Below, piece after piece: positions 18,220 through 34,489 of a stretch of DNA of 64,000 nucleotides; position 1 is the stretch's first letter, and each line of letters begins with the position of its first letter. The DNA comes from Luteibacter aegosomatissinici. GTDB taxonomy: Bacteria; Pseudomonadota; Gammaproteobacteria; Xanthomonadales; Rhodanobacteraceae. The notes beneath the pieces are model-generated. The model did not search any database. It was not told the DNA's origin and worked only from the letters and a program-made list of their open reading frames with translations. The stretch spans positions 2,108,001-2,172,000 of the forward strand of contig NZ_CP095742.1 in the NCBI RefSeq assembly GCF_023078495.1. Direction: 5' to 3'. The translations under genes and the position numbers were made by a program.

Positions 18220-18954
18220 ATGGCTAAGGTGTCGCGTGCGTGGTGGACGTTGTTGCTTGGGTTGACAGTCGGGGGGATTAGCTCTTGGCTGATTTTCCGT
18301 GCTCCAGTTTGGGCTTGTGGTCCTTTCCGTGTCGAGAAATCGGCAGAGTGGGCCGGGGTATTGGTGAGCACGCTCGCGGCGGCGTTTACGCTTCTCGCGG
18401 TTGTGACCGGCTTACGGAGTGCGGAACGTGCCATACAATCCGAGCGACTCATGCGAAAGGAGGAGCGCGATCACGCGTCTGCCCGCGAGCAGCGACACGC
18501 CGGCCTTCTGTTATCGATGCTCTGTAGTGACCTCTTTGGCCTATCGGTGCATGCGTTGGTTTGGGCCGCGTTGCTTGAGGATGAAGAGCACAGTCTAGAA
18601 GGCGTGTATCACCAAATATCTCAGTATCATCTCCCTTCGTTCGATATGGCTCTGCCAAGCTTGACCACTCTGCCTCGTGATCTCGATACGAATCTCGGAT
18701 ACACGTTCCTTGAGTTCCGACGGATTAAGGCTCTTGTTGAGGGAAACCGGATGCTTTCCGGCACTTGGGACGGTGGGGCAGTGGCTGCCGGACGGACCAA
18801 CCTTCTCTCGGTTGTAAAGCCGTTCTGTGAGACGGCCATGCAGAGCTACGTACTGGCGAGCATTGCTGCGGACGAGAAACCCCTTGTGAGGGAGATCGCG
18901 AAGGCGGCAGCAGACATTATCAACATTCAGGACAGCCTGAAGGACAATGACTGA
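18220..18954 (+). CDS. Hypothetical membrane protein, prophage cargo
   Basis: 244 residues. Two membrane segments, at about 8-25 (LLLGLTVGGISSWLIF) and 43-62 (WAGVLVSTLAAAFTLLAVVT), are followed by a basic helix and a soluble C-terminal domain of about 170 residues with no recognised family. The start is ATG 18220; 20 upstream codons look non-coding. The layout (two N-terminal helices, cytoplasmic domain) resembles small membrane-anchored phage exclusion proteins, but this is inference. Confidence 0.65.
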   Translation: MAKVSRAWWTLLLGLTVGGISSWLIFRAPVWACGPFRVEKSAEWAGVLVSTLAAAFTLLAVVTGLRSAERAIQSERLMRKEERDHASAREQRHAGLLLSMLCSDLFGLSVHALVWAALLEDEEHSLEGVYHQISQYHLPSFDMALPSLTTLPRDLDTNLGYTFLEFRRIKALVEGNRMLSGTWDGGAVAAGRTNLLSVVKPFCETAMQSYVLASIAADEKPLVREIAKAAADIINIQDSLKDND

Positions 18955-18974
18955 TCCGTTATCTGGGTACGGTA

Positions 18975-19280
18975 GTGAATATCGAAGGGAAGGATTGGCT
19001 TACCGAAGCCGAGGCGGCGCATTACTGCGGAGTCAGCATCCGCCAGTTCCAGGCGCACTATGAGGTTGTCGGCTTGTTGCCCAGACGGTTCATGGGCAAG
19101 AAGCTCTACGAGCGTGCCGCATTGTACGAAGCGATTGCGAAGGCTCCGCCTTGGGATCGTGAGACAGCTCCGATCCAGCCGCTAGCCGACTCACCCCTCG
19201 GTCCATACCGCAATTTGACTGCCACGAGGCTCAGACCCTACAAGCCGAGGAAGAAGGGCTCTGCTGACGGCCTTTTATAG
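18975..19280 (+). CDS. HTH-domain protein upstream of the serine recombinase
   Basis: 101 residues from a GTG start at 18975. The N-terminal helix-turn-helix reads WLTEAEAAHYCGVSIRQFQ then AHYEVVGLLPRRFMGKKLYER, the excisionase/MerR-like pattern seen again at 17354. The C-terminus is basic. It ends with TAG at 19278-19280, so TAG works as a stop for this early-type gene if the call is right. It is the likely directionality factor or regulator of the recombinase 90 bases downstream. Confidence 0.65.
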   Translation: MNIEGKDWLTEAEAAHYCGVSIRQFQAHYEVVGLLPRRFMGKKLYERAALYEAIAKAPPWDRETAPIQPLADSPLGPYRNLTATRLRPYKPRKKGSADGLL

Positions 19281-19371
19281 CGTCAGAAAACTCCCCTCGG
19301 GGCACATACTTCCACGACTGTGGCCCTAGATACGCCTATTTTAGGCTAGCCATGACTGCCAGGAGCACGCA

Positions 19372-20922
19372 ATGTGCCCGGCCAAATTCGTGCTGCCTAC
19401 GCCCCATCCAGTTCCTGTGGCTGCCTATCTGCGGATGTCCACGGATATGCAGCAGTATTCCATCACGAACCAGACCAGGGCGATAACGGGTTACGCCAAC
19501 TCCCACGGAATGAGCATTGTCCGGACCTACCGGGATGATGGACGTAGCGGGCTGACGATCGAGCACCGTCCGGGATTGATATCGCTGATACAGGATATCT
19601 CCCATGGACCTCCTGGGTTCACCGCCGTACTCGTACTGGACGTGAGCCGCTGGGGTCGTTTCCAGAATTCCGACGAGGCCGCCTATTACGAGTTCCTGTG
19701 CTGGAAGGCAGGAATTCGGGTCTGCTACGTCGGGGAGCTGTTTGAGAACGACGGGACGCCCTTCGCCATGGTGGTCAAGGGTATCAAGCGGGCCATGGCT
19801 GCCGAGTACAGCAGGGAGCTGTCTGCGAAGACCTCGGCCGGTCAGCGGAACCTCGCCACTCTCGGATATCACCAGGGGGCGCTGTCGGGCTACGGTCTTC
19901 GACGGATGCTCATTGACACTAGCGGGAAGCCAAAGGGTCTCCTAGCAATAGGTGAGCGCAAGAGCTTCGCCACCGATCGCGTGATTCTGGTTCCTGGGCC
20001 CATTGCAGAAGTTCGCACCGTGCGATGGATCTTTGACCAGTGCATCGCGGGCGTGTCGTGTACGGACATCGCAAGGGCCTTGAATGCCAAGGGGACGTTG
20101 AATCACTTAGGGCACCCCTGGACTTATCAAACAGTCCGTACGGTGATCGAGAGCGAGAAATACGTCGGCACGGCCGTCTATGGGAGGGACAGCAAGCTGC
20201 TGGGCGGGAAGCAGGTGGCCAATCCCGAATCCATGTGGGTGCGTAAGAAAGACGCCTACAGGCCGATAGTCACGCAGGAGGTCTTTGACGCGGCTCAGCG
20301 TTCCCGTAAGGATCAGGTAGCACGAATGCCCACAGATGAAATGCTGAAACGGGCTAGGGCGATCTGTAGACGCCTGGGGACAATCAGTTCGACGCTGATT
20401 GCCCGTGAGCCCGGTTGCCCATCTGTACCTGCCTATACGCGACGGTTCGGTAGCCTCAATGCGCTTTACAAGATCCTGGGCTTCGAGCCTCGTACCCATA
20501 AACACTATGGCGAGGTGAGGGCCTACGTCACTATTTGGCAGAGGACGCTGACGGCCTTCACCGCTGACTGGCTGGAGGAGGCGGGGTCACACGTAGAACG
20601 ACGTGCAAGGTCGCTTACTATAGATCATGCGTGGACGGTCTCGTTTAGTGTGCTGAACGCGCACGGGGTCACCACGAACTATCCCGCCTGGTTCCGGCAT
20701 CGGGAGCCCGAGGATACGGATATCGTGGTCTTTGCCCGAGCCAGCTACACCGAGCCTTGTCCACGGGACTATCTCGTGTTGCCCAGAGTCCTATTTCCTG
20801 AGTGGCCTAACGCCTTCTACAACCACAACGGCCCCACCATTGAGGGCTGCACGTATCCTTCGTTAGCCATCCTGGGCGATCTAGCCAGGCTTTCTCGAAT
20901 GGAGAGTCAGCTATGTGGGTAA
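19372..20922 (+). CDS. Serine recombinase with C-terminal repeat domain
   Basis: 516 residues. The N-terminal resolvase catalytic domain carries the active Ser in AAYLRMSTDMQQYSITNQ, Arg in DVSRWGRF, and the long helix KRAMAAEYSRELSAKTSAG. A Recombinase domain follows (ARALNAKGTLNHLGHPWTYQ, then VRTVIESEKYVGTAVYGR). After about residue 310 there is a segment like homing-endonuclease-associated repeats (GCPSVPAYTRRFGSLNALYK). The element also has a tyrosine integrase, so this protein may serve another role: inversion, integration of a nested element, or a second excision route. Confidence 0.85.
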   Translation: MCPAKFVLPTPHPVPVAAYLRMSTDMQQYSITNQTRAITGYANSHGMSIVRTYRDDGRSGLTIEHRPGLISLIQDISHGPPGFTAVLVLDVSRWGRFQNSDEAAYYEFLCWKAGIRVCYVGELFENDGTPFAMVVKGIKRAMAAEYSRELSAKTSAGQRNLATLGYHQGALSGYGLRRMLIDTSGKPKGLLAIGERKSFATDRVILVPGPIAEVRTVRWIFDQCIAGVSCTDIARALNAKGTLNHLGHPWTYQTVRTVIESEKYVGTAVYGRDSKLLGGKQVANPESMWVRKKDAYRPIVTQEVFDAAQRSRKDQVARMPTDEMLKRARAICRRLGTISSTLIAREPGCPSVPAYTRRFGSLNALYKILGFEPRTHKHYGEVRAYVTIWQRTLTAFTADWLEEAGSHVERRARSLTIDHAWTVSFSVLNAHGVTTNYPAWFRHREPEDTDIVVFARASYTEPCPRDYLVLPRVLFPEWPNAFYNHNGPTIEGCTYPSLAILGDLARLSRMESQLCG

Positions 20923-21263
20923 CGCACACAGAGCGGGCGTGGCGGCGGGCGGAGGAGGCTGGCGATTTGGCGAAAGCCGCCCGACTGGCAGAGTCCCGTA
21001 TTGCTGGCGCCTCAAATGCACTCGGCGCGATTCAAGCGGATGCCGAAGGACGGCGGCGGCTTACGGAAGCAGGATTCTATCGACTCTCACTCGGAAGGTC
21101 GTCTCGGGTCGGCAGGAGTGGCCGGGCCGAAGGGTTGGCCGTACTGGAGGCCGTCATCTTGGCGAGGTCACTGGCGAGAGTTCTATCTAGCCCGCAACTG
21201 GTGCGCTGGCTATCGAAGCACCACCCCGCCGAACTTGCTGCGCTCAACGCAATGGCCGAGTAA
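20913..21263 (+). CDS. Hypothetical protein coupled to the serine recombinase
   Basis: 116 residues, starting at ATG 20913 inside the recombinase 3' end, so translation is probably coupled. All-alpha, Ala/Arg-rich sequence (RAWRRAEEAGDLAKAARLAE, ILARSLARVLSSPQLVRWLS). No family was recognised. The overlap suggests an accessory protein of the recombinase. Confidence 0.6.
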   Translation: MWVTHTERAWRRAEEAGDLAKAARLAESRIAGASNALGAIQADAEGRRRLTEAGFYRLSLGRSSRVGRSGRAEGLAVLEAVILARSLARVLSSPQLVRWLSKHHPAELAALNAMAE

Positions 21264-21351
21264 CCAGCTTTCAGTCTTCTTCGCTTGGTGCGCGCATGGG
21301 TACGAACTCGATGCGAGTACCGCAGGCAGGGGACTTATGGCGGATTATCCA

Positions 21352-22101
21352 TCAAGCAGCTATATAGGCTGAATCGAAATCAGATAACGTAATTGCCTTT
21401 GATACTTGCGCCAGGATCGCCAACTCTTGCGTAGCCTTCTTCGGTTCAGCGCGGTCATCGACAATGAACAGGACAGACTCTGTATCCATCAGCTCTTTCT
21501 GCATCTGCAAAATTTTTCGCAACCGTGAGGAGACAGAGAGTGGGATGGGAGCAATGGCATCCACATACTTTGTCCCCCACTTAAAATCGAAGCGCAGCTC
21601 TTGTCCGTTCGGTAACCGAACGATCGGGGACTTCTCAATGGGCCACAATGGAGCCTTTAGCCTCATGAGGCGTTCGACCTCACGATTGAGACTGAGATCA
21701 GAGTCAGCTGCGGCGTAATGCTCCTTCTCCCACGCGACTAGGGCGCAGATCATACGGATGACGGAGCCGCCCAATATATGCAGGCGCGATGCATCACCGT
21801 CAATCTCAAACGAACCGTCGTCGCATAGAGAAAATCCATGAGTTGCGGCAAGCTCCGCTAAGCCGCGCCAATTTCGACGGTCCTCAAGAGAGTATCCGAG
21901 GCTACGTAATGCGAATAACCACAATCCATCGTCCGTGACGACGAATCTATCCCCATAATTGATGAGATAAAAATCGATGGGTGATCCGTTAGGCAGCGAC
22001 ATGGGACTACTTACGTAGAGTACGTCCTGACCTTGGCCGTCGATGCGATTGCATCGCCAGCCCATATCTCCAAAGATGCTTTTGCAGTCGATCGATAGCA
22101 T
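21352..22101 (-). CDS. DUF1828-domain protein, cargo cassette
   Basis: 249 residues. The N-terminal half shows the DUF1828 pattern (PIDFYLINYGDRFVVTDDGLWLF, then LGYSLEDRRNW). The C-terminal half is mixed alpha/beta with LRFDFKWGTKYVDAIAPI and VLFIVDDRA. Function unknown; related domains occur in prophages and defence-rich loci. It lies two bases downstream of the gene at 22104-22595 and is less GC-rich than the host genes, suggesting a transferred two-gene module. Confidence 0.65.
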   Translation of the reverse strand: MLSIDCKSIFGDMGWRCNRIDGQGQDVLYVSSPMSLPNGSPIDFYLINYGDRFVVTDDGLWLFALRSLGYSLEDRRNWRGLAELAATHGFSLCDDGSFEIDGDASRLHILGGSVIRMICALVAWEKEHYAAADSDLSLNREVERLMRLKAPLWPIEKSPIVRLPNGQELRFDFKWGTKYVDAIAPIPLSVSSRLRKILQMQKELMDTESVLFIVDDRAEPKKATQELAILAQVSKAITLSDFDSAYIAA

Positions 22102-22103
22102 GC

Positions 22104-22595
22104 TTAGGCAAACAAATCGTCAATGAAGGGTTGAGCCAAAGACCGTCCGGGAATGTCTCGGATTGTCGCATGCCGACGGAATCTTTCGATCCAACCAGCC
22201 AAGAGCGAAGGGTCTAGATTACAAAGAACCTGCCTCACTGCATGAGACTGCCCGGGTTTGCGTTCGTCTCCAATGTGGATGTGGGGTCCGTAGATCTCTT
22301 TCTCCAAATCCACATGAGAGCGTTTGAAATGTGGATAAACCTCTAGCATCAGAACGCGGTGGACTTGCGTCCCCTGTCGGTGCATTACTGCGTATTTTTG
22401 GTAAAGGCCAAAACCCCGCCGCTCCGCTTCGCCTTCGAAAGTCAGGCCAGGAATACTAGTCCGGCTTGCATCAAGCAATGCGCTGCTGCCGCGATGGCAC
22501 CTTACGCGATTGTCCCTAGGATGCCATTCGATTTCTTCGGCAAGGAACTTGGCCTGTTTACACCATATTCGGCATTGCTCAATCCAGTCTTCCAT
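22104..22595 (-). CDS. Hypothetical protein, partner of the DUF1828 protein
   Basis: 163 residues, not recognised. I start at ATG 22593-22595 (MEDWIEQC), preceded by GGGGAGCAGC; an in-frame ATG 11 codons upstream is possible. No membrane segment. The C-terminal half has His-rich elements (RSHVDLEKEIYGPHIHIGDE, RRHATIRDI) that could bind metal or nucleic acid. It precedes the DUF1828 gene by two bases, so the two are probably one functional pair (defence, toxin-antitoxin or anti-repressor). Confidence 0.6.
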   Translation of the reverse strand: MEDWIEQCRIWCKQAKFLAEEIEWHPRDNRVRCHRGSSALLDASRTSIPGLTFEGEAERRGFGLYQKYAVMHRQGTQVHRVLMLEVYPHFKRSHVDLEKEIYGPHIHIGDERKPGQSHAVRQVLCNLDPSLLAGWIERFRRHATIRDIPGRSLAQPFIDDLFA

Positions 22596-22705
22596 GTGCT
22601 GCTCCCCTTGCCTGACCGGCCTTCCCACTGCGCTCCAACCGTGACAATGCCACGACTAGGTTCTCGCCGAAAGGGTAGGCCGTCCCTGGCCTCAGCAAGT
22701 GCACG

Positions 22706-24928
22706 TTATGGGCTCTGCGTCGCCGCTGGGAGCCCGTAGAGGTAGTAGTCCAGCAGGCCCGTCCGGGTGGCCGGGGATTGGGCCTTGAGCCACCGCTGAA
22801 TGGCCTCGGAGGTCGCCTTGGCGTCTGCGGCCGTCATGCCGGTTTTGGCTATGGCCCGTGAGTTCACCGCCCCGATGGCGTCCGTGACACCGGCACCGAG
22901 GCTGGCCCCCAGCAGGCCACCGTCGATGCCCCCTACGGCATGGCCTAGAAGGCCGCCAAAGCTACCTCCTACAGTGCGTCCGATAAGACCCCCACGGTTA
23001 CCTAGGGTCTTACCGAAGACTGCCCCTGAGAGTAGTCCCTGGGCCTGCATATCGGCTGCCGTGCCTGGACCGGCGGCGGCGATCTTTTGGTCGGAGATTC
23101 CTCGGCGAAGGAGGCTGTCCCTAACATTCTCCAACTAGCTTCGCGTGGCGTCACCGAGGCCATAGCGGGCGTTGTCATCGGACCGGAGGGCCTGCTTTAC
23201 ACGAGCGACGGCAAGCTGTGGATCGCCAGCAGTGTTAAGGCTACCCGGAGCGTTAGGGTCAAGTAGCCCACGTACGGCTTGCATGTCGTTAATAGGCTGC
23301 GAAAGCTTGGCGTACGTCGCCAGGTTATTACGATAGCCCGGTACGGCCCGGTCGAGAGTAGAGACAATCTTGGCGGTGACCGGTCCATACAGTGCAGCCT
23401 CTTGGGAACCAACGACGCCATTGGTGGCGTTTGCCGAGAGCATATTCCCAATGTTCTGGCGCATATCGTCAAGGGCCCGGGCAGGGACCATTCCAGCCCC
23501 GTCCCGATTCCTGGCGATAAGGTCGAGGTGCTGGCGCGCCGCACCGGACACCGTAGGGTTGCCTGACTTAGTGAGTTCTTCCAGTTGGCCCACGATTCGG
23601 CTGGGGTCAACCATGTTCTTGTTGATCGCCGTAATCGCCTGGTCCAGCACCTTCTGTGCCTTCTTGGTCTTCACGGTGATCTGGTTCAACTGGTCGGCAG
23701 CTTCGCCCTCGTCCAGGGTCCCACGTGCCACCTTTCCGGCAATCGTCTTTGCGTCCTGCAAGGCGTCGAAGTCGGGGCGGAACATTTCGCCCTTGATGCT
23801 ATCCAGCACATCCGCCGCGTTCTTGTACCGCTGCTGCGGTGTGGTCGGGGCGAGCTGGTCACGGTAATACGCTTGCGTTGCATCCCTACGTGCCTGTACG
23901 GCGGTTGCCAGGTCATCGTCAGTCCCGGCGAGACGGTTAAGCAATCCGACTCGGGCCGAGTTGTTGGCGTTGTCCTGAGCTACGAAAGCAGCCGAGGAAG
24001 CAGGGTTGTTGCGCAGCATGCGTTCGGCCTGTACGGCGTCGGGCGTCTGCAAGACCTGAGCGGCAGAAGGCACTTCACCCGGAACCAACTGAGGTGCATT
24101 TGCCAGTTTGGCCACGGTCGCAGGGTCACTCCCGTAAAGGCGGGCGATGTTGGCATCCGCCACGGCTTGCGGGTTGGTGACGTGCTGAATGAGGTTGCCT
24201 ACACCACGGCCGACAGCGCCAGCACCTTGGCCGACACCGTAGAGAACCGGGCCCGTGGCAGCTCCTACGGCGATCTGCTTGGCCTTCTCCGCCCCGTAGT
24301 TATCGCCACCGTCCGCGATGGGCTGCGTCGCAGCCATGAGGCCGCCTTCGGCAGACAGCAAGCCAAGCTTTCCGGCGGTGCTGGATACCTTGGGCAACAG
24401 ACCGAGGGCCCGGGCTTCACCGATACCGGTAGCCCAAGGAAGAACCTCACCGAGCGTTGCGCCCGTGTAGCTCCCTACCGAGTTCGGCACCGACTGCTGG
24501 TAAGCCTGCTCGCGATCCTGAACCCACTTGTCGTACGCGGCCGTTTGCTGGTCGAGCCAGTTACCCTTTTGCTTGCCAGTGACCAAGCCCGAAAGGGTGT
24601 TATCAGCCGGTGCTACGAAGTCACCAATGGCCTTGGCACCGTGCATGCCCAACTGGGCAACGCCCACCGGCACGCTTGCTACGTGGTGGGCAAAGGCATC
24701 GCCGAGGTTATTGCCGAAGTCGTTTACGTCCTTGTAGCCCTGGGCAATGGCATCACCCGCACGCTGCATGAGCGATCGCTCGGGCTGTGCTGGCGCTTGG
24801 GTCGAAGCCGGGGACTGCTTGGCTAGATTTGCCTGGGCGTACGCAATGGCGTCCTGCTCTGTTGCGCCCTCTGGTGCATTGATCTCGTACGTGTGCCCAT
24901 CCGGACCGGTTACGTGGAAGATGGGCAT
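22706..24928 (-). CDS. Phage internal-virion-like protein with one in-frame TAG
   Basis: 740 codons from ATG 24926-24928 to TAA 22706-22708, read through TAG at 23135-23137 (codon 598). The first 597 residues start with a small beta domain (GPDGHTYEINAPEGATEQDA), a Gly/Ala-rich membrane-active segment (LYGVGQGAGAVGRGVGN), then long helices. After the TAG the frame continues for 142 residues with a Gly-zipper region (GGSFGGLLGHAVGGIDGGLL) in matching style, so both halves are one protein. Such proteins are ejected into the host with DNA in podoviruses of the BPP-1 kind. ATG overlaps the upstream TAA (TAATG). Confidence 0.7.
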
Positions 24929-26308
24929 TAATCGACCCTCCGAGCAGACCAGCCGCCGTTCGTGGCGGCAGGCTGAGCCGCGGGCTGGCTCATCGAGGGG
25001 CTTACGTTACCGAACTGCACCTTGCGGGCGGTAAGGTCATTGAGCTTGTCCACGTTCGCCTGCTTCTGGTTATGAATGTCCTGCTTGAGGGCCTTGTAGA
25101 CGGCACGGAGCTGGTCGGGGGTCTGAGCCGCATTGATGGCTTCAAGGGCATGCTCACGCGAGCTGTCCGTCGTTCCCGCAGCACCCGTCGCCGACGAGGC
25201 AATCTTCGCGTACTCCTGGGCCACAAGGTTCCGGGCCGTAAGGAACGCGGCTGTATCCGGATCGCCACCAATGTTGCTCTTGGCGTTCAGCAGCATCTTG
25301 TTGAAGGCGGGGATGCCAGTGCGGCCAACCTTGTCACCGAGCGAAAGCATGGTGTCGAAGTTCTTATCGAACGTTTCCTCCTGCCGCTCAAGGGCATCGG
25401 CCTGCTTCTGCGTGTAGGCAAGCGAACCCTGAATCGCCTTATTCCGACCGGAGACCGTGGCAAGCTCCTGAGGACCCACGCCAGCCTCTTTCGATACCTG
25501 GGCGATCCGGTTGTTCACCTGATTGCGAATCGCATCACCCGACTTACCCCGCGAGTACTGCGGGCGGGTCCCGGTAAGGATCTGGTCCCACGCCATGTTA
25601 TCGATGGCGTCCGGAGTCAGGTCATTGTCACCACCCGAACTCGTGAGGCCAAAGGCAGCTTTGAGCTGGTCGTCAGTCGCACCCAACCCGCGTAGGGCAG
25701 CAATCTTTCGGTCGGTCTCCGAAGCCTGCAGGGGGGGCGAAGCGATTGGCCGTAGCGATGGTCTTGTAGCTGCCGTCCTGCTGCTGTTCCTGGGTAAGGA
25801 TGCTGTTGCCCTGTTCGATCTTTCGCAGGTCAGGCGTGTTGAGGTCACGCTGAGCCTTCTTTGCCTGCAAATCGGCCATCTGGCTGGCGATGGTATTTCG
25901 ATGCAGGTCCAGAGCCGCCTCGGGATCGATTCCCATGAGGGCGTTCGCATACCCGTCCTGATTGAACCCAGTCGTACCGTCCGGGTTCTGCGTGACGAAG
26001 TGAAGTGCAAGGTCTTGGATCTGGCGACGACGCTGCATCTGGTCCTGCTGGTCAGCCATCTGCGATTGCATGAAGTCCTGACGCTGCTGCTGGAACTTGT
26101 CGTCCTGCAACTGGCGAGCGCCTTGCTGTACGGATTGCAGGCCGCCCAGCAGACCACCGGATATTGCCTGGAACGGGGTGACGCCCGGCTGGCTGTTGTT
26201 GGCGAGAATGGAAAGGCCCGCGTTGAGCAGGCCACCGTTGACGAGCTAGCGTCGCTCGTCGTCACTTGCGCCCGGAGTCGGGCCAATGAGGTTATCGAGG
26301 AAAGACAT
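24928..26308 (-). CDS. Phage internal-virion-like protein, one in-frame TAG and a homopolymer frameshift
   Basis: Starts at ATG 26306-26308 (MSFLDNLIGPTPG, AAGG upstream) and ends at TAA 24928-24930. TAG is codon 21 (26246-26248), inside RR-TAG-LVNGG. The reading frame then runs to a seven-C tract (G7 at 25731-25737 on the plus strand), where it must skip one base to reach the frame that carries QASETDRKIAALRGLGATDD to the end. Six Cs would restore the frame. The upstream half is Gln-rich (FQQQRQDFMQSQMADQQDQM), the downstream half helical. The break may be mutation, assembly error or +1 frameshifting. Confidence 0.6.
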
Positions 26309-26317
26309 TCTGCCGCC

Positions 26318-26611
26318 TTAGTGCACTTGAGCGTCTGGGGACTGGCGAACGCTCGGGTTGTGATTCGGTTCGAAGATGGTCACTACCGAAGAAATCGGGA
26401 GCCACACGATGTTTCGAATCCCGTTGTGGTCGGGGAGTAGCTCGGCCCGTAGGAAGTTCGGAACAGAGGCATCCAGCCACGTGCACCGAAGGGTAGGGCA
26501 CACAATCGTGGTTTCGTTCTGTTTGGCTGCCAGCAGGTAAGGCATGGCGTCAGGGCTCGCATGAGCCTTCGCGGCCGGACTGTCCGGGTCCATGATGATC
26601 AAGTAATCCAT
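26318..26611 (-). CDS. Hypothetical phage protein, 97 residues
   Basis: Starts at ATG 26609-26611, nine bases after the preceding late gene, and ends at TAA 26318-26320 just before the next. It begins MDYLIIMDPDSPAAKAHASP and has a hydrophobic strand ISSVVTIFEP near the end. No family recognised. Its place in a tight late operon, and its intact frame free of TAG, support it as real. Confidence 0.6.
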   Translation of the reverse strand: MDYLIIMDPDSPAAKAHASPDAMPYLLAAKQNETTIVCPTLRCTWLDASVPNFLRAELLPDHNGIRNIVWLPISSVVTIFEPNHNPSVRQSPDAQVH

Positions 26612-26620
26612 AGTGATCCT

Positions 26621-27592
26621 TTAGAGGTAGTAGCCAGCGAGAGCGAGACCGCCGCCGATAACAGCGCCAGCACCAGCACCAATGGGGCCACCCGCTGCCC
26701 CGATAGTTGCACCAGTTGCAGCACCAGCGAGAGCGCCGCCACCTGCGGCTGCGACGGCACCGCCAGCGGTACGCGGCTTGTAGGCAGGGTTGAGGCCACT
26801 CGTCGCCGAACTGGTGAAGTTGCCCGCAGACGAGTTCAGGGCATTGCCAAGGTTGGCGAGGCGCTGCTGGTCATAGCCGTACATCCGCTGGTACCAGTCG
26901 TTGTACTGCTGGTCGATGTTGCCCTGGGCGAAGTCCTGCTGGACCTGGCCGAGACCGGCGAGCTGGCCGTTGTACTGGGCCTGCAAGGACTGAGCCCCAG
27001 TGAGGGCCTGGGAGGCACCAAGGATGTTGCTGGCGTTCTGCTGATTGGCAGCCAGTTGGTTCTGGAACCCCTGCTGCCATAGCTGCTGCTGATTTTGCAG
27101 GTCTTGGTAGCGAAGATTGGTCGTATTCGCGGCAAGGCGGTCAGCAAGCGTCTACTGGCTATCCTGCTGGGCCTACGCCATGGCCGAGCCACCGAATGCG
27201 CCGCCCTGTGAGAACTGGGCCGCGAGCTGGGGAACGGCAGACTTGTTGTAGGCGTTGATCGTGTCCTGATTGGACTGGGCGATGACCTGATTGAGATTGC
27301 CGCTGCCTGCGTAGGGATTGCTACCGGCGTTGACGTTGTACGCGCCCCCAAGAACGCTGTTCAGGGCGTTCTGCTGGGCCCCACTGCCTTGTGCACCTAG
27401 CCAGGCGTTACCTAGGGCCTGCTGCTGCCCGCTGGACAGGTTGGCGTTGAGCTAGCCGTCATAGGAGACGTAGGGCTTGTTATTGACCTGATTGGTCTGG
27501 TTAAAGAACTAGCTGTACTCGTTGGACAGCCAAGCCGGGAGTTCGGTCTTGGTCGTCGTCGTGGTGCTTTTCGGTTGTCCACCGCCGCCCAT
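26621..27592 (-). CDS. Glycine-zipper internal-virion-like protein with four in-frame TAG codons
   Basis: 324 codons from ATG 27590-27592 (GAGG seven bases upstream) to TAA 26621-26623. TAG occurs at codons 28, 47, 140 and 147 (27509-27511, 27452-27454, 27173-27175, 27152-27154); there is no in-frame TAA or TGA. The frame is plainly coding throughout: a Thr-rich start (MGGGGQPKSTTTTTKTELPA), then a Gln/Asn-rich middle (NLRYQDLQNQQQLWQQGFQN), then a Gly/Ala zipper at the C-terminus (GAAGGPIGAGAGAVIGGGLA). TAG contexts such as SAMA-TAG-AQQDSQ-TAG-TLADRL fit Gln. Gln is coded mainly by CAG here. A reader using the standard code would see only the last 121 codons. Confidence 0.75.
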
Positions 27593-27622
27593 ATTGCAAC
27601 CTCATAGATTGGTGTTTGGTCC

Positions 27623-27679
27623 GCCCTACCGTAAAAGTGAGCCGTGCATTACCCGGCACGGCGTCGGGCGAGGTAGGGC
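27623..27679 (-). other. Nested stem-loop in the late-operon leader
   Basis: Outer arms GCCCTACC (27623-27630) and GGTAGGGC (27672-27679) enclose an inner perfect stem GCCGTGC (27641-27647) / GCACGGC (27656-27662). It lies 31 bases upstream of the four-TAG gene and would be in the leader if late transcription starts further right. No T run follows on the minus strand, so it is not an ordinary terminator. Confidence 0.5.
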
Positions 27680-27735
27680 CTTGGGCGGCAAGGGTCCCTA
27701 TGACTTATGCCATTTCCGGGGTGTGTTTCCGTCCG

Positions 27736-28992
27736 CTATACCTGCCGCACAAACCCAATCTGTATCCAACCCTGGTCAGGAAATAGAATTCTCCCATCCG
27801 GCATCACCGCATAAGCGACAAAGCGCGTTTGATAAACCCAAGCCTCTCCATGGTTCGGTTGCGGCGGGGCGACTGCCCATCCAACTTGAAACCATTCACC
27901 CGTGTAAATATTCCGCACAAAGATGAAGCCCTGACTATTGATCAAGAACTGAATGGGACTATTCGGAAGCCCACTGCCATCGGCAAAAAACGCTTGCGCT
28001 ACGATCCGAACCTGCTGGGTGTACACCTGCGGGCTCACGCTCATATCGGGTCCGTTGCTCGGAACCGGCAGCGCTGACTGCGATGCAAGTGCAAGGGTGC
28101 CAGTTCCATCATCCGACGAGCGTGACTCGTAGGCCGACGCAACTTGAGATGCATTGCTTCGTGCTTGTCCCTCTACAGCATTACCGCCATCACGAATGTA
28201 TTCCCACGCGAATCGCTCAATGCCCCAATCCCCGTACTGTTTCACGTGGGTAAGTTCATGCGCCCACCATTCTGGCTCCTCGGAAACGTCTGGCGGTTCA
28301 CGATTGAAGACGATCGTATCCCCGACTGTTACCGCATAATCAGCCCCCATGAATCGGTTGCTTCGCCCGATCAAGTTAGGGAGCGTTATCTCAATTTGCC
28401 CAACCGCGTATCTGGCACGACCGAGGGTTGATTCATCGATCAGTCCGCGAAAAGCCAGTTTGACACTATCGGGAATCGGCTTGGAGCGTGAGTAGTGTTG
28501 GTCACGCGCAGCTTGGAGTGCAGCTGCTAACGGTGCGGCTGCGATCTGAAGTGGGTTCTGACCCCTCAGTGCATTTGCAGCCCCACCGGCGGTTGCAGAT
28601 GCAAGGTCAGTATTTAGCTCGGTACTAAACGTAGCAACGTCAAAGATGAAGGCGCCAGAGTCACCTACCCACTTCTGCGCGTATCGTTGAGCACGATTGT
28701 AAAGATATTGCTGGGGCTGGCGCGCCAGAGATGCGCCACCTTCAACCAAATCGCCGGTTGACGATGCCACTTGCTGGAGTGGTGCGAGAATGTCACTAGA
28801 GCTCTTTTGCCCCACAGCAGCCTGGGCAGCGTTGACCACCACCTGGGTGGGCGCAACCGTCCCCTGATAAACGACGGTGCCTGCGTCGCCCAGTGTCCTC
28901 TTGGCGTCACTCCAGAAATCGGCAGATGCCCCGCCAGATACCGTCAGCAATGCAAAAAGCAACGTATTTGCCGCAAATGCTCGATGCGTCAT
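27736..28992 (-). CDS. Exported DUF4157-domain protein, prophage cargo
   Basis: 418 residues with a signal peptide (FALLTVSGGASA), a helical N-terminal region, a DUF4157 zinc-metalloprotease-like motif (EPEWWAHELTHVKQYGDWGIER; HELTH) at about 240, and a C-terminal beta-rich domain with repeated Trp/Phe strands (VRNIYTGEWFQVGWAV). DUF4157 proteins are often secreted effectors or toxin parts. I start at ATG 28990-28992; 30 upstream codons precede the signal peptide and are excluded. It ends in TAG (27736-27738); with TAG read as sense it would run 24 codons to TAA. Confidence 0.7.
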   Translation of the reverse strand: MTHRAFAANTLLFALLTVSGGASADFWSDAKRTLGDAGTVVYQGTVAPTQVVVNAAQAAVGQKSSSDILAPLQQVASSTGDLVEGGASLARQPQQYLYNRAQRYAQKWVGDSGAFIFDVATFSTELNTDLASATAGGAANALRGQNPLQIAAAPLAAALQAARDQHYSRSKPIPDSVKLAFRGLIDESTLGRARYAVGQIEITLPNLIGRSNRFMGADYAVTVGDTIVFNREPPDVSEEPEWWAHELTHVKQYGDWGIERFAWEYIRDGGNAVEGQARSNASQVASAYESRSSDDGTGTLALASQSALPVPSNGPDMSVSPQVYTQQVRIVAQAFFADGSGLPNSPIQFLINSQGFIFVRNIYTGEWFQVGWAVAPPQPNHGEAWVYQTRFVAYAVMPDGRILFPDQGWIQIGFVRQV

Positions 28993-29202
28993 GACTCGCT
29001 CTCCCCGTGCAGTATGTGCACTCCACTCTTCCCCCCCAGGGTGAGCTGATGCCTTGGTGCCGCTGAGCGCAATATGTCGCACGTAGGATTTGCCAACTTC
29101 GCGGTACTCAATAGATCATACGAAGAACTACCTAGTTCGCAGCGCGGCGAACCGCACGACGTGTCTACCACGGCAAGAACGGAGCATAATTCCTGCGTGA
29201 AA

Positions 29203-29469
29203 ATGGTTGATGAAGATGCAATTCTTCGATTCGCCCAGCTAAATGCCGAGGCGATCGCGATGAATGACGCGGCCTTGGCGGACGATCTGGACGAGGCAAG
29301 GTTTCGTGCGCATCTGATTAGGACGGCCGCTGAGGAAATGGGCCTGTCCGAGGTGGTGGAGGCTGCCCAGGACGTAGTAGTCCTTCTTAGGGCGCCGGGT
29401 ACAGTGCCGTTACCTGATTACGGCCACGCAATGCTCAGGCTGGCAAGAATCCTCACACCTAGGGATTGA
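29203..29469 (+). CDS. Hypothetical protein, 88 residues
   Basis: I start at ATG 29203 (MVDEDAILRFAQ); a GTG two codons upstream is possible. Acidic, all-alpha sequence (FAQLNAEAIAMNDAALADDL, FRAHLIRTAAEEMGLSEVVE), ending PDYGHAMLRLARILTPRD. No family recognised. It is divergent from the DUF4157 gene. Confidence 0.5.
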   Translation: MVDEDAILRFAQLNAEAIAMNDAALADDLDEARFRAHLIRTAAEEMGLSEVVEAAQDVVVLLRAPGTVPLPDYGHAMLRLARILTPRD

Positions 29470-29707
29470 GCCGGAGCACGATACGAGCGTAAGATGCTTC
29501 CATGGCCTCACGGCCATCAGGCTTGGCAATTATCAAAGCACTTTTCGCCGAGTTCATTTGCACCGCGTTTGGCATGGATACCGCCTTGGCCCGCATCGCA
29601 GTCGCTACAGCATTGGATTTAATCCTAATGGCTTTTGATGGCTCTGAAGGAGGGCATAACATGGCAATTCATGGTGTTTTCATGGGTATGAATACTGTAG
29701 GGGTTCT
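29470..29707. other. Region with conflicting weak ORFs
   Basis: A plus-strand frame (29502-29759) and a minus-strand frame (29459-29662) overlap and both have plausible composition. Neither has a good ribosome site. The plus frame runs into the RNA gene at 29708. I cannot choose between them, and there may be no gene. The motif ATTCATG recurs at 29671, 29730 and nearby. Confidence 0.35.
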
Positions 29708-29804
29708 GCGGGGACCAAGGCGGGGTATTCATGTCAGCGGTGAAGTGATTAGGCGTTAAGTGTGCCAAGAGGCCCTATGGGGTTCGACTCCCCTCCCCGC
29801 ACCA
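29708..29804 (+). ncRNA. 97-nt RNA with tRNA-like 3' end, class unresolved
   Basis: The 5' seven bases GCGGGGA (29708-29714) pair perfectly with TCCCCGC before A-CCA (29801-29804). A T-arm-like hairpin GGGG-TTCGACT-CCCC directly precedes that 3' strand, and a Rho-independent terminator starts 11 bases after CCA. The T stem has only four pairs. An inner hairpin TTCA/TGAA encloses a nine-base loop containing GCGG, D-arm-like. I cannot draw a standard anticodon arm and see no CTA anticodon. It lacks tmRNA hallmarks such as a tag reading frame. It could be an aberrant tRNA, a tRNA fragment acquired from another attachment site, or a new small RNA. Confidence 0.5.
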
Positions 29805-29814
29805 ATTCTGAAGA

Positions 29815-29840
29815 GGCTGCCCACGAGGCGGCCTTTTCTT
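29815..29840 (+). terminator. Terminator of the tRNA-like RNA
   Basis: Seven-pair stem GGCTGCC (29815-29821) / GGCGGCC (29827-29833) with loop CACGA, followed by TTTTCTT. The T run exists only for plus-strand transcripts, so it serves the RNA at 29708. It abuts the convergent gene at 29840. Confidence 0.75.
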
Positions 29841-30475
29841 TAACCCAACACCGCAAGGAAGCGGCTGGCTGCCTCAGACAGCCATCGCCTCATCATGGCC
29901 TCGGCTTTCCCCGTAAGCTCACGGTAGGTGCTGGCGCGTAGTCCTAGCTGCCGGGCCCGGTCATCCTTGGAGATCGCAGCCCGCCCACACAGGATTCGCT
30001 GCATGGCGTCCGTAAGCGCCTCCCATGCGAACGCATTGCGAAGGCATGCCAGGCCGTATAGCTCCACGGTCGGCCAGTACCTATGTACATCGCCCGTGGC
30101 GTACAGGAGAAGGGTAGCCTCTAGGGGGCCGTCCAGTTTCGCTATAGCCAATGCTCCTAGCGCGTCCCAGGACGGGTTATAGATCGGGTTGGCGGTGAAC
30201 TTGTGGTATCGCCATGACCGGAGGCGACGGGTGACGATTTTCCCCTCGTCGTCCCGAAGGGTGGGCACAAGTACCTTTCGCTTACCCCTTCGTTCCTCAC
30301 GCTCAGCCACGAAAAGCTCGCGAGGATTCCCGAGGTCTCCCGAGGATGAATCGAGGGGGCGCTCGTAGTTCACCCGCGATATCCAGGGTGTACCGCAAGC
30401 GAAAGCGGTAGCCAGGATACGTGCCGCCCTCTCGACCATTTCTTGCTGGGTTTCGGCCCGCCCGCCGTCCGCCAT
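29840..30475 (-). CDS. Putative phage late-gene regulator (antiterminator-like)
   Basis: 211 residues. The C-terminal part has a helix-turn-helix of the sigma-region-4/antiterminator-Q kind (ISKDDRARQLGLRASTYREL) and a terminal helix. The N-terminal part is basic (REERRGKRKVLVPTLRD). Position between the control operon and the late block fits a late regulator. Known families of this shape include phage Q-like proteins; assignment is inferred. It starts at ATG 30473-30475 and stops with TAA. Confidence 0.5.
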   Translation of the reverse strand: MADGGRAETQQEMVERAARILATAFACGTPWISRVNYERPLDSSSGDLGNPRELFVAEREERRGKRKVLVPTLRDDEGKIVTRRLRSWRYHKFTANPIYNPSWDALGALAIAKLDGPLEATLLLYATGDVHRYWPTVELYGLACLRNAFAWEALTDAMQRILCGRAAISKDDRARQLGLRASTYRELTGKAEAMMRRWLSEAASRFLAVLG

Positions 30476-30478
30476 GGG

Positions 30479-30772
30479 TCAAGCTTCCATGCGATGTCGC
30501 TGGGCTACCAATTGCTCATGGCGTCGCCATGCCCATCGGCGATAGGGAACTGCTAGCAAAGTGCAAGCACCAAGCTGCACCCGCTGGATGTCCGGCTTTC
30601 GGTTGTTCCAGCCTGGCGACCGTTGGGTAACGGTGAGAGCGTTACTAACAGCGTTACTTTCTGTCCGCATCTTGTCCGCTTTCGATGCGGACAGCCTCGA
30701 TGCGTCGGCACGCGTCACTGACGCGTCGTTTGGGGTCGTTGGGTGGTATACGGGGAGATAGTGGATGCTCAT
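30479..30772 (-). CDS. Hypothetical protein, 97 residues, uncertain
   Basis: Open frame from ATG 30770-30772 to TGA 30479-30481, four bases before the next gene's start. Basic, Ser/Thr-rich, with no recognised domain and no clear ribosome site. It fits the operon by position only. The frame could be chance in GC-rich DNA. Confidence 0.35.
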   Translation of the reverse strand: MSIHYLPVYHPTTPNDASVTRADASRLSASKADKMRTESNAVSNALTVTQRSPGWNNRKPDIQRVQLGACTLLAVPYRRWAWRRHEQLVAQRHRMEA

Positions 30773-30804
30773 AAACCGTAGAGCCCTTGGTAAATATTAA
30801 AGGA

Positions 30805-30939
30805 GCCCGATAGTCGGGGCACAAACACCGGTAAAAAGGTCAGAACTGACCCGATGGTCGGGGCGATTACGAGGCAAGTCACGCCACTTTCTTCTCGATT
30901 GACCCGATGGTCGGGGTACATTGACCCGATAGTCGGGGT
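30805..30939. repeat. Four palindromic iteron-like repeats
   Basis: Four copies of CCCGATrGTCGGG, starting at 30806, 30850, 30903 and 30925, each an inverted repeat (CCCGA/TCGGG) with a three-base centre. Copies 2-4 share the wider consensus GACCCGATrGTCGGGG. The last two lie in the coding end of the gene at 30879-31370, whose C-terminus therefore reads CTPTIGS. They may be binding sites for a replication or partition protein. Confidence 0.75.
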
Positions 30940-31370
30940 GGGACTTCTGTTTTTAGCGGCTCGCCATGAGTCCGCCATTTCGCTGATGCGACCGTGGTAA
31001 ACGGTACGTCCAGCGTTACTTTCGTCTCATGGATTGGAAACCATGTGTACCCGTACAGGCTAGGAGCGTGCATCCCGCCCTGACGTGTAAGCTCGATCAT
31101 CCCAGCACCTAACAATTCCCTGATCGCCCGTTGCAAGGTGTCTTTGGATTTCCAACCCTGAGTCTTCATCCACGACCAGGGAAGGGCGAGGTTCCCGTTG
31201 TTGAACCCGTTGTATCGCGCGCCCATGTCGAGAATGAGAGCTTTTGCTTTGTGACTAAGGCCCCGATAGTTCGGCGAGTTCAACACCGCTGCGGGCACGA
31301 TCAGGCGGTGTCCCTCCGCCGATGCTCCTTTCCCGGTATGCCTCGCTCGCTTGTCGTACCTGGGCTTCAT
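30879..31370 (-). CDS. Winged-helix replication/regulatory-like phage protein
   Basis: 163 residues from ATG 31368-31370, which overlaps the upstream stop (ATGA); an upstream extension is inside the previous gene. The core resembles a phage winged-helix module: HRLIVPAAVLNSPNYRGLSH, then KAKALILDMGARYNGFNNGN, then a DNA-binding segment WKSKDTLQRAIRELLGAGMI. Similar proteins sit in replication modules of small phages and plasmids. The palindromic repeats overlapping its 3' end are plausible targets. Confidence 0.6.
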   Translation of the reverse strand: MKPRYDKRARHTGKGASAEGHRLIVPAAVLNSPNYRGLSHKAKALILDMGARYNGFNNGNLALPWSWMKTQGWKSKDTLQRAIRELLGAGMIELTRQGGMHAPSLYGYTWFPIHETKVTLDVPFTTVASAKWRTHGEPLKTEVPPRLSGQCTPTIGSIEKKVA

Positions 31371-31777
31371 TGCGAACCTCCCGCCGCCGTAACTGCCTCT
31401 CCAAGCACTCCAACACAAGGGCCGGATGACTGGGGGAATACATCGGGCAGGGGGAGGTGTTGCGATCCTTGTAGCGAGTGGTGGAAACGCGCCCGTGCGA
31501 TATCGATACGGGAGCCCGTCTTAGCCGAAGCCTTGAGGCGTGACCTAATATCGGTCCAGCGGGCTTCCACCTTCGGCCACTCGCGAACGAGCGTGGCGAA
31601 CTGGTCCGGCTGCACAATGCCAGCGACGCGAGTTTGGCCTCCGGCCTTGACCAGCTCAGTGAGCAAGCTGCAAACACGCTCGCCTTGGATGTGTTGAGCG
31701 CGGGGCCAACGTGGATCCAGGGGGCAGATGTTCGCACTGCATGAGTCGAAGCGGGGGCACCGGGGAGCGGTACTCAT
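31367..31777 (-). CDS. Conserved hypothetical phage protein (Cys motif)
   Basis: 136 residues. The N-terminus has CPRFDSCSANICPLDPRW, a pattern common in small proteins of integrative elements, where Cys residues may bind metal. The remainder is helical (RVCSLLTELVKAGG, VEARWTDIRSRLKASAKTGS). Start ATG 31775-31777 overlaps the alpA stop, and its stop overlaps the next start, so the three genes are translationally coupled. Confidence 0.65.
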   Translation of the reverse strand: MSTAPRCPRFDSCSANICPLDPRWPRAQHIQGERVCSLLTELVKAGGQTRVAGIVQPDQFATLVREWPKVEARWTDIRSRLKASAKTGSRIDIARARFHHSLQGSQHLPLPDVFPQSSGPCVGVLGEAVTAAGGSQ

Positions 31778-32010
31778 GCGTCACCCCGTGAAACGGCAAT
31801 ACGCCCAGCCGCCCAAGACTGAATTTCCGCCTCGACCCACGCGCTGGTTGAGAGCGCCAGCTTTACGCGGCGAGGGAATTTTCCTGCCGCCTCCAGGCGG
31901 TATACCTGTGTCCCAGAAAGGCCGGTGCGCTCGCATACGGCAGGTAGGCGAAGGAACTTGATCGGGTTTTCGGGCACAAACGGGCCCGACACGTCGCTCA
32001 TAAGTGACAT
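31774..32010 (-). CDS. AlpA-family excisionase/regulator
   Basis: 78 residues from ATG 32008-32010 with GGAATCTCCC upstream. It is a small winged-HTH: KFLRLPAVCERTGLSGTQVY then RLEAAGKFPRRVKLALSTSA and WVEAEIQSWAAGRI. AlpA proteins activate or direct excision of P4-type elements. It leads the coupled operon with the next two genes. Two inverted repeats just upstream (32048-32079) are candidate operators. Confidence 0.82.
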   Translation of the reverse strand: MSLMSDVSGPFVPENPIKFLRLPAVCERTGLSGTQVYRLEAAGKFPRRVKLALSTSAWVEAEIQSWAAGRIAVSRGDA

Positions 32011-32047
32011 GGGAGATTCCAGTTGAGCCGGTCCCGAGCGAGTGCCT

Positions 32048-32079
32048 TGCAACGTTGTAGGTAACTACCTACGATGCAA
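32048..32079. promoter_or_regulatory. Nested inverted repeat upstream of alpA (candidate operator)
   Basis: Inner arms GTAGGT (32057-32062) / ACCTAC (32067-32072) with four-base spacer, and outer arms TTGCA (32048-32052) / TGCAA (32075-32079). The same half-site appears at 32308-32331, suggesting one repressor binds both. Confidence 0.6.
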
Positions 32080-32122
32080 GCGCCGCTGCCGGGAGAGCAC
32101 GGCCTTAGTTAGCAAGACTCCT

Positions 32123-32155
32123 AGCCCTCACCGTTGCGAGCGGTGGGGGCTTTTT
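32123..32155 (+). terminator. Terminator-like hairpin on the plus strand
   Basis: AGCCCTCACCG / CGGTGGGGGCT with a seven-base loop, followed by TTTTT. Nothing coding is upstream on this strand, so a short antisense or leader RNA may end here. An alternative is a cryptic structure. Confidence 0.5.
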
Positions 32156-32656: not shown

Positions 32657-32682
32657 AAAAAGCCCGCCGGTTAGGGCGGGCT
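32657..32682 (-). terminator. Terminator after the gene at 32709
   Basis: AGCCCGCC / GGGCGGGCT stem with a short loop and an A5 run on the plus-strand left side, so it acts on minus-strand transcripts that come from 32990 or the integrase. Confidence 0.75.
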
Positions 32683-32708
32683 CGAATACATGGGATGGGG
32701 ACAGCTGA

Positions 32709-34446: not shown

Positions 34447-34489
34447 TCTGTGATCGCCTAGAAGGGTCGATCGGTCCTGATTTTGCTAT

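What the first reader, a model, noticed from the sequence alone, without database searches (positions are those of the whole stretch)
22706..27592. Late prophage genes read through six in-frame TAG codons: candidate amber recoding
Three adjacent minus-strand late genes (26621-27592, 24928-26308, 22706-24928) keep coding sense across TAG at codons 28, 47, 140, 147; 21; and 598. Every internal stop is TAG; none is TAA or TGA. All three genes end in TAA. Genes of early or cargo type in the same element may end in TAG (18975-19280, 27736-28992), which fits the pattern known from recoded phages where only late genes use TAG as Gln. The alternative is CAG-to-TAG mutation in a dead prophage, which these CAG-rich genes make plausible.
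Basis: partly seen in the sequence, partly recalled or inferred. Interest (0 to 1): 0.95.

Follow-up and report, generated by a model that had tools for sequence, protein, structure and literature searches.

The report
Mobile island with amber-recoded phage genes
A mobile DNA island in a soil bacterium carries virus particle genes in which the stop signal TAG stands for the amino acid glutamine, yet neither the island nor, as far as could be seen, the bacterium has the special tRNA needed to read it, so these genes can probably work only while a related virus that brings that tRNA is in the cell.

Summary
The six in-frame TAGs are real, and TAG is a sense codon (Gln) in this gene lineage. Homologues of the three genes lie in the late operon of P22-like podophages: 18 of 22 IMG/VR contigs of the group, and a complete-looking prophage in another Luteibacter genome, carry in-frame TAG in late genes. 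Opposite TAG stands mostly Gln (log2 odds +2.5). All 14 recoded contigs that reach the terminase gene carry a CUA tRNA; the 3 TAG-free ones do not. The window element is not a prophage but an 18-kb island (16529-34490) in tRNA-Leu(caa), with integrase and AlpA, without capsid, portal or terminase. Five of 23 genus genomes carry its integrase at 78% identity or more; the same five carry an island g1 with 3-9 TAGs behind a conserved 120-nt leader. No CUA tRNA was found in the islands or among 45 tRNAs listed for the window's genome. Best reading: a satellite-like island whose late genes are translated only when a recoded helper phage supplies the suppressor tRNA. TAG=Gln is near certain; a working satellite is inferred.

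The parts
16529..34490 (.). integrated island, 17,962 bp
   Evidence: In two same-genus genomes without it (G015 = L164, G012 = L165) the alignment to the left flank ends at window 16528 and that to the right flank starts at 34491 (34490 in L165), the two overlapping by 20-21 bp in the empty site
16509..16528 (+). attL-like repeat of the tRNA-Leu 3' end (14 nt exact, about 20 nt with one indel)
34491..34577 (-). tRNA-Leu(caa), integration target
   Evidence: ARAGORN; empty-site comparison
33081..34307 (-). tyrosine integrase, 408 aa
   Evidence: Pfam Phage_integrase 1e-24; 78-91% identical in four other islands of the genus
31774..32052 (-). AlpA-family regulator
   Evidence: Pfam Phage_AlpA 2.4e-14; relatives in four other islands
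31367..31777 (-). island backbone gene, 136 aa, no family
   Evidence: in four other islands, 59-71%; no Pfam match
30879..31418 (-). island backbone gene, 179 aa, possible DNA-binding/replication protein
   Evidence: HTH_36 below cut-off; homologue L035:5176-5673 weakly matches DnaD-like helicase loader phrog_186, 7.4e-5; in three other islands
30479..30772 (-). island backbone gene, 97 aa, no family
   Evidence: 4 of 23 genus genomes (own, G008, G013, G026); no Pfam match
29840..30475 (-). island backbone gene, 211 aa, no family
   Evidence: in four other islands; no Pfam match
27736..29082 (-). cargo gene with eCIS_core domain; ends in TAG as a true stop
   Evidence: Pfam eCIS_core 3.9e-8; stop codon; no match in the other elements compared
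27621..27740 (-). conserved non-coding leader upstream of g1
   Evidence: One copy in 5 of 23 genus genomes, upstream of g1 in each (150 of 667-1138 first-look candidates scored per genome); among 20 phage and related loci one weak partial match, L086, E 0.056; no Rfam match
26621..27592 (-). g1, DNA-ejection-protein homologue; TAG at codons 28, 47, 140, 147 read as Gln
   Evidence: PHROG phrog_4287 DNA ejection protein: 1.4e-4 for the part of this copy after the last TAG, 1.2e-10 and 6.1e-9 for homologues; codon alignment of 9 sequences
27509..27511 (-). TAG, g1 codon 28 (TAG also in phage G001; CAG in G003 and G013; not Gln in the other five)
   Evidence: g1 column 84
27452..27454 (-). TAG, g1 codon 47 (TAG also in island G008; Gln in 3 of the other 7)
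   Evidence: g1 column 103
27173..27175 (-). TAG, g1 codon 140 (TAG also in G013; Gln in the other seven)
   Evidence: g1 column 218
27152..27154 (-). TAG, g1 codon 147 (Gln in 5 of 8 others)
   Evidence: g1 column 225
26318..26611 (-). 'o', 97-aa ORF in the place where the phages have a 133-143 aa gene
   Evidence: homologues in the G004 (64%) and G005 (39%) islands; no significant match in 22 viral contigs, G001-G003 or L036; phage gene:
25731..26308 (-). g2, first part; TAG at codon 21 (26246-26248; TAG also in G001, G004, G005; Gln in G002, G025); frame breaks at C7 run 25731-25737
24928..25725 (-). g2, second part in another frame (frameshifted copy)
   Evidence: 75% identical to L004 5057-5824
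22706..24928 (-). g3, late-operon protein without a known family; TAG at codon 598 (23135-23137), Gln in all five aligned relatives
   Evidence: 73-77% identity to three phage copies
19372..20922 (+). large serine recombinase
   Evidence: Pfam Recombinase and Resolvase; 46-48% relatives in three other islands
18975..19280 (+). small gene near the far end of the island, true TAG stop

Best explanation
The genes come from a lineage of P22-like podophages in which UAG is decoded as glutamine with a phage-encoded CUA tRNA (shown by comparison). In the window they sit not in a phage but in an integrative, satellite-like island that has its own integrase, AlpA regulator and leader sequence and, of the phage late genes, only g1-g3. 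g1 is a DNA-ejection-protein homologue; g2 and g3 I call ejection-type from their place in the operon only. No CUA tRNA was found in the host, so translation of g1 would stop at codon 28. I infer that these products are not made until a recoded phage infects or is induced. The helper's suppressor tRNA, perhaps together with its late transcription, then allows g1 (and, in intact islands, g2 and g3) to be made. These proteins could enter the helper's virions and serve transfer of the island, or interfere with the helper. Shown: TAG=Gln lineage, island structure, absence of a CUA tRNA in what was searched, co-occurrence of integrase, leader and g1. Inferred: helper dependence, expression, virion entry, transfer. 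This copy is partly defective (g2 frameshift).
For: TAG=Gln: 229 of 392 non-TAG residues opposite TAG are Gln, log2 odds +2.49 against at most +0.31 for any other. CUA tRNA in G001, G002 and prophage G025 and in 14 of 14 recoded contigs that reach TerL (12 by ARAGORN, 13 by my scan, each of the 14 by at least one), 0 of 3 TAG-free ones. No CUA tRNA in five islands and two scar regions or among 45 tRNAs listed for the own genome. Island borders from two empty sites. Integrase at 78% or more in 5 of 23 genus genomes, island g1 in the same five, leader in the same five; major head protein in none of them. Past the TAGs g1 is under purifying selection between islands: dN/dS 0.115 (window-G005), 0.145 (window-G008), 0.047 (G004-G013). 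TAG at g1 column 103 is shared by window and G008, which group together (support 81/85) at dS about 1.4. g3 of three islands is separated from three phages, 100/100. 'o' was found only in islands.
Against: No expression, induction, packaging or transfer was observed. The window's g2 is frameshifted; in G008 and G013 only a fragment of g3 and no g2 was found, so the late module is eroding in some islands. g1 of the five islands is not one clade (AU p 0.0053 and 0.0079), so g1 was exchanged with phages and part of its purifying selection may have acted in phages. The second half of the window's g2 matches phage G003, not the other islands. Neighbouring genes of G004 and G013 differ widely in dS (0.18 against 1.1): mosaicism. 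dS values are near saturation. The window's g1 has the longest end branch of its tree (0.44). Phages known to infect these strains are lacking.
Confidence: 0.55

Rival explanations
1. The late genes are relics of a recoded phage caught in the island by recombination and no longer used; TAG=Gln is ancestral but the genes do nothing in the island.
For: g2 frameshift in the window; only a fragment of g3 and no g2 found in G008 and G013, fragments of g3 next to tRNA-Leu(taa) in G026 and G021; g1 not one clade; window g1 has the longest end branch of the tree (0.44).
Against: g1 is open to its end under TAG=Gln in 5 of 5 islands with the integrase, each time behind the same leader, of which only one weak partial match was found in 20 phage and related loci; dN/dS 0.05-0.15 past the TAGs in the three island pairs cited (other island pairs up to 0.22); 'o' found only in islands.
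Confidence: 0.3
2. A code-triggered anti-phage device: the ejection-protein copies are made only when a recoded phage brings its suppressor tRNA and then spoil its virions.
For: Same genetics as the best explanation; island cargo in G004 includes an IrrE-like domain gene with PADLOC hits and a DUF4411 gene without; G004 carries a CI-like repressor homologue and G005 a relative of it.
Against: No direct evidence; cargo differs between islands; g1 aligns with phage g1 along its whole length.
Confidence: 0.1
3. Ordinary decay: CAG to TAG mutations in a dead standard-coded prophage.
For: CAG-rich genes; one frameshift.
Against: 486 TAG against 2 TAA and 4 TGA in 22 viral contigs, with CUA tRNAs in the recoded ones; TAG at columns where no aligned relative has Gln, g1 columns 79 and 222; purifying selection past TAG.
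Confidence: 0.03
4. The host itself suppresses UAG, so the genes are expressed from the chromosome at any time.
For: tRNA-Ile and tRNA-Ala(tgc), which usually lie in rRNA operons (recalled), are missing from the list of 45, so the list is not complete.
Against: No CUA anticodon among the 45 listed; two genes of the island end in TAG.
Confidence: 0.02

Closest known systems
Amber-recoded (genetic code 15) phages, crAss-like and Lak phages (PMC9523058: search listing; PMC10746230: passages) and Borges et al. 2022 (recalled; not held; cited in PMC10746230)
   Same: TAG=Gln, phage-encoded CUA tRNA, standard-code host, TAG in late genes
   Different: Here small P22-like podophages (contig stretches of GC 0.56-0.62) and a prophage of Luteibacter; and above all island copies without any CUA tRNA
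Gram-negative phage-inducible chromosomal islands (PICI; PMC6092414, passages seen)
   Same: Integrase, AlpA-type regulator, specific att site, no capsid, portal or terminase gene found, cargo
   Different: 18 kb rather than 12-15 kb, carries phage late genes including an ejection-protein homologue, no recognised primase/Rep, recoded genes; induction and packaging untested
P22-type podophages (likeness by gene order; recalled)
   Same: Late gene order TerL, portal, scaffold, major head protein, stabilisation-type protein, ejection protein
   Different: In 50,697 GenBank phage records the stabilisation-type protein has 139 matches, all below 60% identity (the 15 listed are 23-31%); g1 and g3 have none

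Membership tests
Amber-recoded (code 15) phage lineage | In-frame TAG, not TAA/TGA, in late genes | tested here: met
Amber-recoded (code 15) phage lineage | TAG aligns with Gln | tested here: met
   log2 odds +2.49
Amber-recoded (code 15) phage lineage | CUA suppressor tRNA encoded by the element | tested here: not met
   Met by 14 of 14 recoded contigs that reach TerL and by prophage G025; not met by the window island or the other islands
Amber-recoded (code 15) phage lineage | Early genes free of TAG | tested here: inconclusive
   Prophage G025: 0 TAG in 7 early ORFs with 50 Gln codons, 48 TAG in 16 late ORFs, but also 6 TAG in 6 ORFs between them (counted). DnaB-like helicase 0 TAG in G001 and G002, yet a small ORF beside it has 2 TAG in G001 and 2 in its G002 counterpart. 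The window island has no phage early genes to test
Amber-recoded (code 15) phage lineage | Gln shown at UAG by mass spectrometry | not testable with these tools
   no proteome available
Gram-negative PICI | Integrase and AlpA/MerR-type regulator | tested here: met
Gram-negative PICI | Replication module (primase/Rep) | tested here: inconclusive
   Only weak HTH_36 and DnaD-like hits; 211-aa gene and homologues without family
Gram-negative PICI | No phage structural or lytic genes | tested here: not met
   No capsid, portal or terminase found, but g1 (ejection-protein homologue), g2 and g3 present
Gram-negative PICI | About 12-15 kb | tested here: not met
   17,962 bp
Gram-negative PICI | Att sites never occupied by prophages | not tested
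   only the site itself was mapped
Gram-negative PICI | Phage-dependent induction and packaging | not testable with these tools
   needs culture
Complete or near-complete prophage | Terminase, portal, major head protein present | tested here: not met
   Major-head-protein profile: none in own genome; the window island shares only g1-g3 with phages G001 and G003 and, with G002, also a short end gene and a 143-aa ORF

The most novel reading that the evidence does not exclude
A family of phage satellites whose virion-protein genes are written in their helper's genetic code: the helper's suppressor tRNA is the key that unlocks the satellite's late genes, so that a change of genetic code acts as the sensor of the right helper.
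Probability: 0.45. Interest if true: 0.96.

Novelty: new variant of a known kind. Interest (0 to 1): 0.86.

Why it matters
The recoded phages in the papers that I saw come from uncultured metagenomes, mostly of the gut. Here is a recoded podophage family tied to sequenced Luteibacter genomes, with a complete-looking recoded prophage and its CUA tRNA in one, and islands that carry recoded genes without the tRNA in five. That makes two open questions testable by induction and infection: what recoding is for, and whether a genetic-code change can couple a parasite of a phage to its helper. It also warns that standard annotation will split such genes or call them pseudogenes.

Tried and rejected
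Close GenBank phage relatives of g1 and g3: no match by tblastn. Profiles of g1 and g3 against PDB sequences: none for g1, one chance-level match (E 0.42) for g3. Rfam RNA next to the CUA tRNAs of G001 and G002 or in the g1 leader: nothing besides the tRNAs and one chance-level hit. The integrase search of viral contigs (183 relatives, best 80 kept) gave mostly unrelated elements; of these 80 only L086 shares the backbone order, and none has g1, g3 or 'o'. RNAalifold of the leader gave little covariation (2 of 22 pairs with a change on both sides), so no structure is claimed; I saw a possible pseudoknot in it by eye and drop it as untested. One clade for all island g1: rejected by AU test. 'Amber lock near the start': five of five islands have their first g1 TAG within codons 23-32; the product of the single probabilities is 0.0026 but ignores kinship. 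Among phage late genes the first TAG is early in MCP, portal, scaffold and g1, less so in TerL, gp4-like and gp10-like, and not in x121, x144 or x135 (g2 and g3 had too few sequences), so I leave it as a hint.
Full report
What was claimed and what is there. The translations confirm TAG at codons 28, 47, 140 and 147 of g1 (26621-27592), 21 of g2 (start 26308) and 598 of g3 (22706-24928). The claimed second gene is not one frame: at a run of seven C (25731-25737) coding sense passes to another frame, 24928-25725. A 97-aa ORF, 'o', lies between g1 and g2.

The lineage is recoded. A scan of IMG/VR with g3 found three contigs, 74-77% identical, with g1, g2 and g3 in the same order. Two of them (G001, G002) have in-frame stops of their own in these genes, all TAG; the third (G003) has none. 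G001 and G002 each have one tRNA match, with anticodon CUA; G003 has none. Codon alignments of g1 (9 sequences), g2 (7 elements; the window's two parts apart) and g3 (6) contain no TAA or TGA in frame. Residues opposite TAG are Gln in 229 of 392 non-TAG cells, log2 odds +2.49, with Thr next at +0.31; cells are not independent. Some TAGs stand where no aligned relative has Gln (g1 columns 79 and 222), as expected of an evolving sense codon. The tRNAs of G001, G002 and G025 share an unpaired first base, G2-C71, G3-C70 and G73 (read by eye), which from memory are glutaminyl-tRNA synthetase identity features; three other CUA tRNAs of the group look different, with C1 or A1 and long variable arms.

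Generality. A scan with the conserved stabilisation-type protein gave 22 contigs, G001-G003 among them. 18 of 22 have TAG in late genes, with 486 TAG, 2 TAA and 4 TGA in the aligned segments (segments of one gene summed). 17 of 22 reach TerL. All 14 recoded ones have a CUA tRNA, 12 by ARAGORN and 13 by my scan, each by at least one; none of the 3 TAG-free ones has. Several of the 14 are close kin, so there are fewer independent cases. Of 299 genomes drawn evenly from the window's order, 2 had the stabilisation-type protein, neither with a stop inside (G025 is not among the rows with a match, and the draw is a sample). The best matches in 50,697 GenBank phage records are distant: 139 records, all below 60% identity, the 15 listed at 23-31%.

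A recoded prophage in a sequenced genome. Genome G025, same genus as the window, holds a complete-looking prophage on contig C2 between two copies of tRNA-Gly(gcc), about 222.5-261.5 kb. Sixteen late ORFs from TerL to the tail fibre have 48 TAG; seven early ORFs (243174-248818, helicase included) have none among 50 Gln codons; six ORFs between the two sets have 6 (counted). A compact CUA tRNA sits upstream of TerL (C2:239816-239886). Default ARAGORN misses it and it lies below the Rfam cut-off (20.8 bits against 29); relaxed ARAGORN and my scan find it. IMG/VR contig L174 carries the identical tRNA and a g1 99% identical, so it is probably the same prophage.

The window element is an island. 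In two same-genus genomes without it the two flanks meet. The island spans 16529-34490, flanked by a repeat of about 20 bp of the tRNA-Leu(caa) 3' end. It holds a tyrosine integrase, an AlpA regulator, four further backbone genes and cargo, and shares with phage contigs G001 and G003 only g1-g3; with G002 it also shares a short gene near the island end (42%) and a 143-aa ORF (71%). A major-head-protein profile finds nothing in the own genome and only G025 among 119 relatives. Terminase and portal were not searched as profiles; their absence rests on the all-against-all comparison.

The island family. The integrase at 78% identity or more occurs in 5 of 23 genus genomes (own, G008, G013, G017, G026). 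Two further matches at E 1e-100 or better, 67% in G010 and 56% in G017, lie where no g1 was found. g1 occurs in the five and in prophage G025, in none of the other 17 genus genomes and in none of 96 others. The 120-nt leader upstream of g1 was found once in each of the same five and in no other genus genome (150 of 667-1138 first-look candidates were scored per genome). In 20 phage and related loci it gave one weak partial match, in L086, a related island without g1. The 97-aa backbone gene was found in 4 of the 5.

No CUA tRNA in the islands. ARAGORN finds none in the fetched island regions. A scan that recovers the CUA tRNAs of G001, G002 and G025 finds none in five islands and two scar regions; the same scan missed one of 14, so it is not perfect. 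The own genome has 45 tRNA matches; 43 fetched and 2 in the window, none CUA. tRNA-Ile and tRNA-Ala(tgc) are not among them, so the list may lack rRNA-operon tRNAs. tRNA sets of the other four island genomes were listed for two only (G004, G005) and their anticodons were not checked outside the fetched regions.

Selection. Past the first TAG of both sequences, g1 has dN/dS 0.115 (window-G005), 0.145 (window-G008) and 0.047 (G004-G013); over all pairs of the five islands the values run from 0.047 to 0.224 (Nei-Gojobori, dS 1.1-2.1, near saturation). g3 between the three islands has 0.117-0.151. The second half of the window's g2 resembles phage G003 and not the G004 and G005 islands (dN above 1 against the latter). 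g3 of the three islands is separated from that of three phages (100/100). g1 is not: window, G008 and G005 form one group (100/96), G004 and G013 another (100/98), and one common group is rejected (AU p 0.0053 with 9 rows, 0.0079 with 26). So island g1 was exchanged with phages at least once, and part of the selection may date from phages. 'o' has no significant match in the 22 contigs or G001-G003.

Reading. TAG is Gln in this lineage (confidence about 0.97). The window genes are sense-coded copies in an island that cannot decode them alone (about 0.9). That the island is a working satellite using the tRNA of a recoded helper is the best explanation (0.55); a relic is the main rival (0.3). 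The first g1 TAG lies at codons 23-32 in all five islands, so without suppression almost nothing of the protein would be made.

Prior work. Searches of the PMC library: 'phage satellite' with 'suppressor tRNA' gave one paper, PMC10879173, on theta ribozymes beside phage tRNAs (passages read). At least three of satellite, ejection protein, helper phage, recoded and amber codon gave three papers, none on this by title and start of abstract. 'Luteibacter' with 'phage' gave 31 papers, 15 listed, none on recoding by title and start of abstract. Searches for recoded phages and for AlpA-type satellites were seen as listings. PMC11210395, PMC10746230 and PMC6092414 were read in passages. Borges et al. 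2022 is not held and is known to me from memory and from PMC10746230. In these searches I saw no report of satellites or islands with recoded genes; subscription journals are mostly not in the library.

Noticed in passing
window 27621-27740 (-); L029 6640-6760; L032 6440-6560; L034 8300-8420; L035 8385-8500: 120-nt conserved non-coding leader upstream of g1 in all five islands, 17-nt core CCCGACGCCGTGCCGGG exact in all five; the core is in none of the phage contigs of this group that were held, but in 20 other IMG/VR stretches not looked at further; no Rfam match.
   Followed up: partly
L075 3316-3386 (-) = G025:C2:239816-239886: Compact CUA tRNA (71 nt) that default ARAGORN misses; similar compact CUA tRNAs in L174 (identical) and L180.
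   Followed up: partly
L036 and L167-L188, major head protein gene: First TAG at codon 14 of the major head protein in 14 of 18 sequences with TAG (L036 and L174 are probably one prophage); the first TAG is early also in portal, scaffold and g1.
   Followed up: partly
L176, L177, L178, L187: Members of the same phage group without TAG in late genes; the three that reach TerL have no CUA tRNA found. In G003 (L178) no late gene ends in TAG either.
   Followed up: no
L189 (G260), L190 (G134): Relatives of the stabilisation-type protein without in-frame stop in another genus of the same family and, weakly, in another family of the order.
   Followed up: no
L037 15576-16818; L039 9790-10186: Fragments of g3 right beside tRNA-Leu(taa) in two genomes, the one in L037 with 3 TAG: probable scars of further islands.
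   Followed up: no
L028 17078-17674; L031 17765-18181: Island G004 carries a homologue of the phages' CI/S24-type repressor and G005 a relative of it; possible immunity or sensing.
   Followed up: no
L014 12283-13994: Island cargo beside g3: IrrE-like domain gene and DUF4411 gene, both ending in TAG, 3 and 6 codons before the next stop.
   Followed up: no
L182, L184, L186: CUA tRNAs with long variable arms and C1 or A1, unlike the others: suppressor tRNA acquired more than once, or another amino acid in those phages.
   Followed up: no
window 27736-29082: Cargo gene with an eCIS_core domain and a possible signal peptide (by eye); no match in the other elements compared.
   Followed up: no
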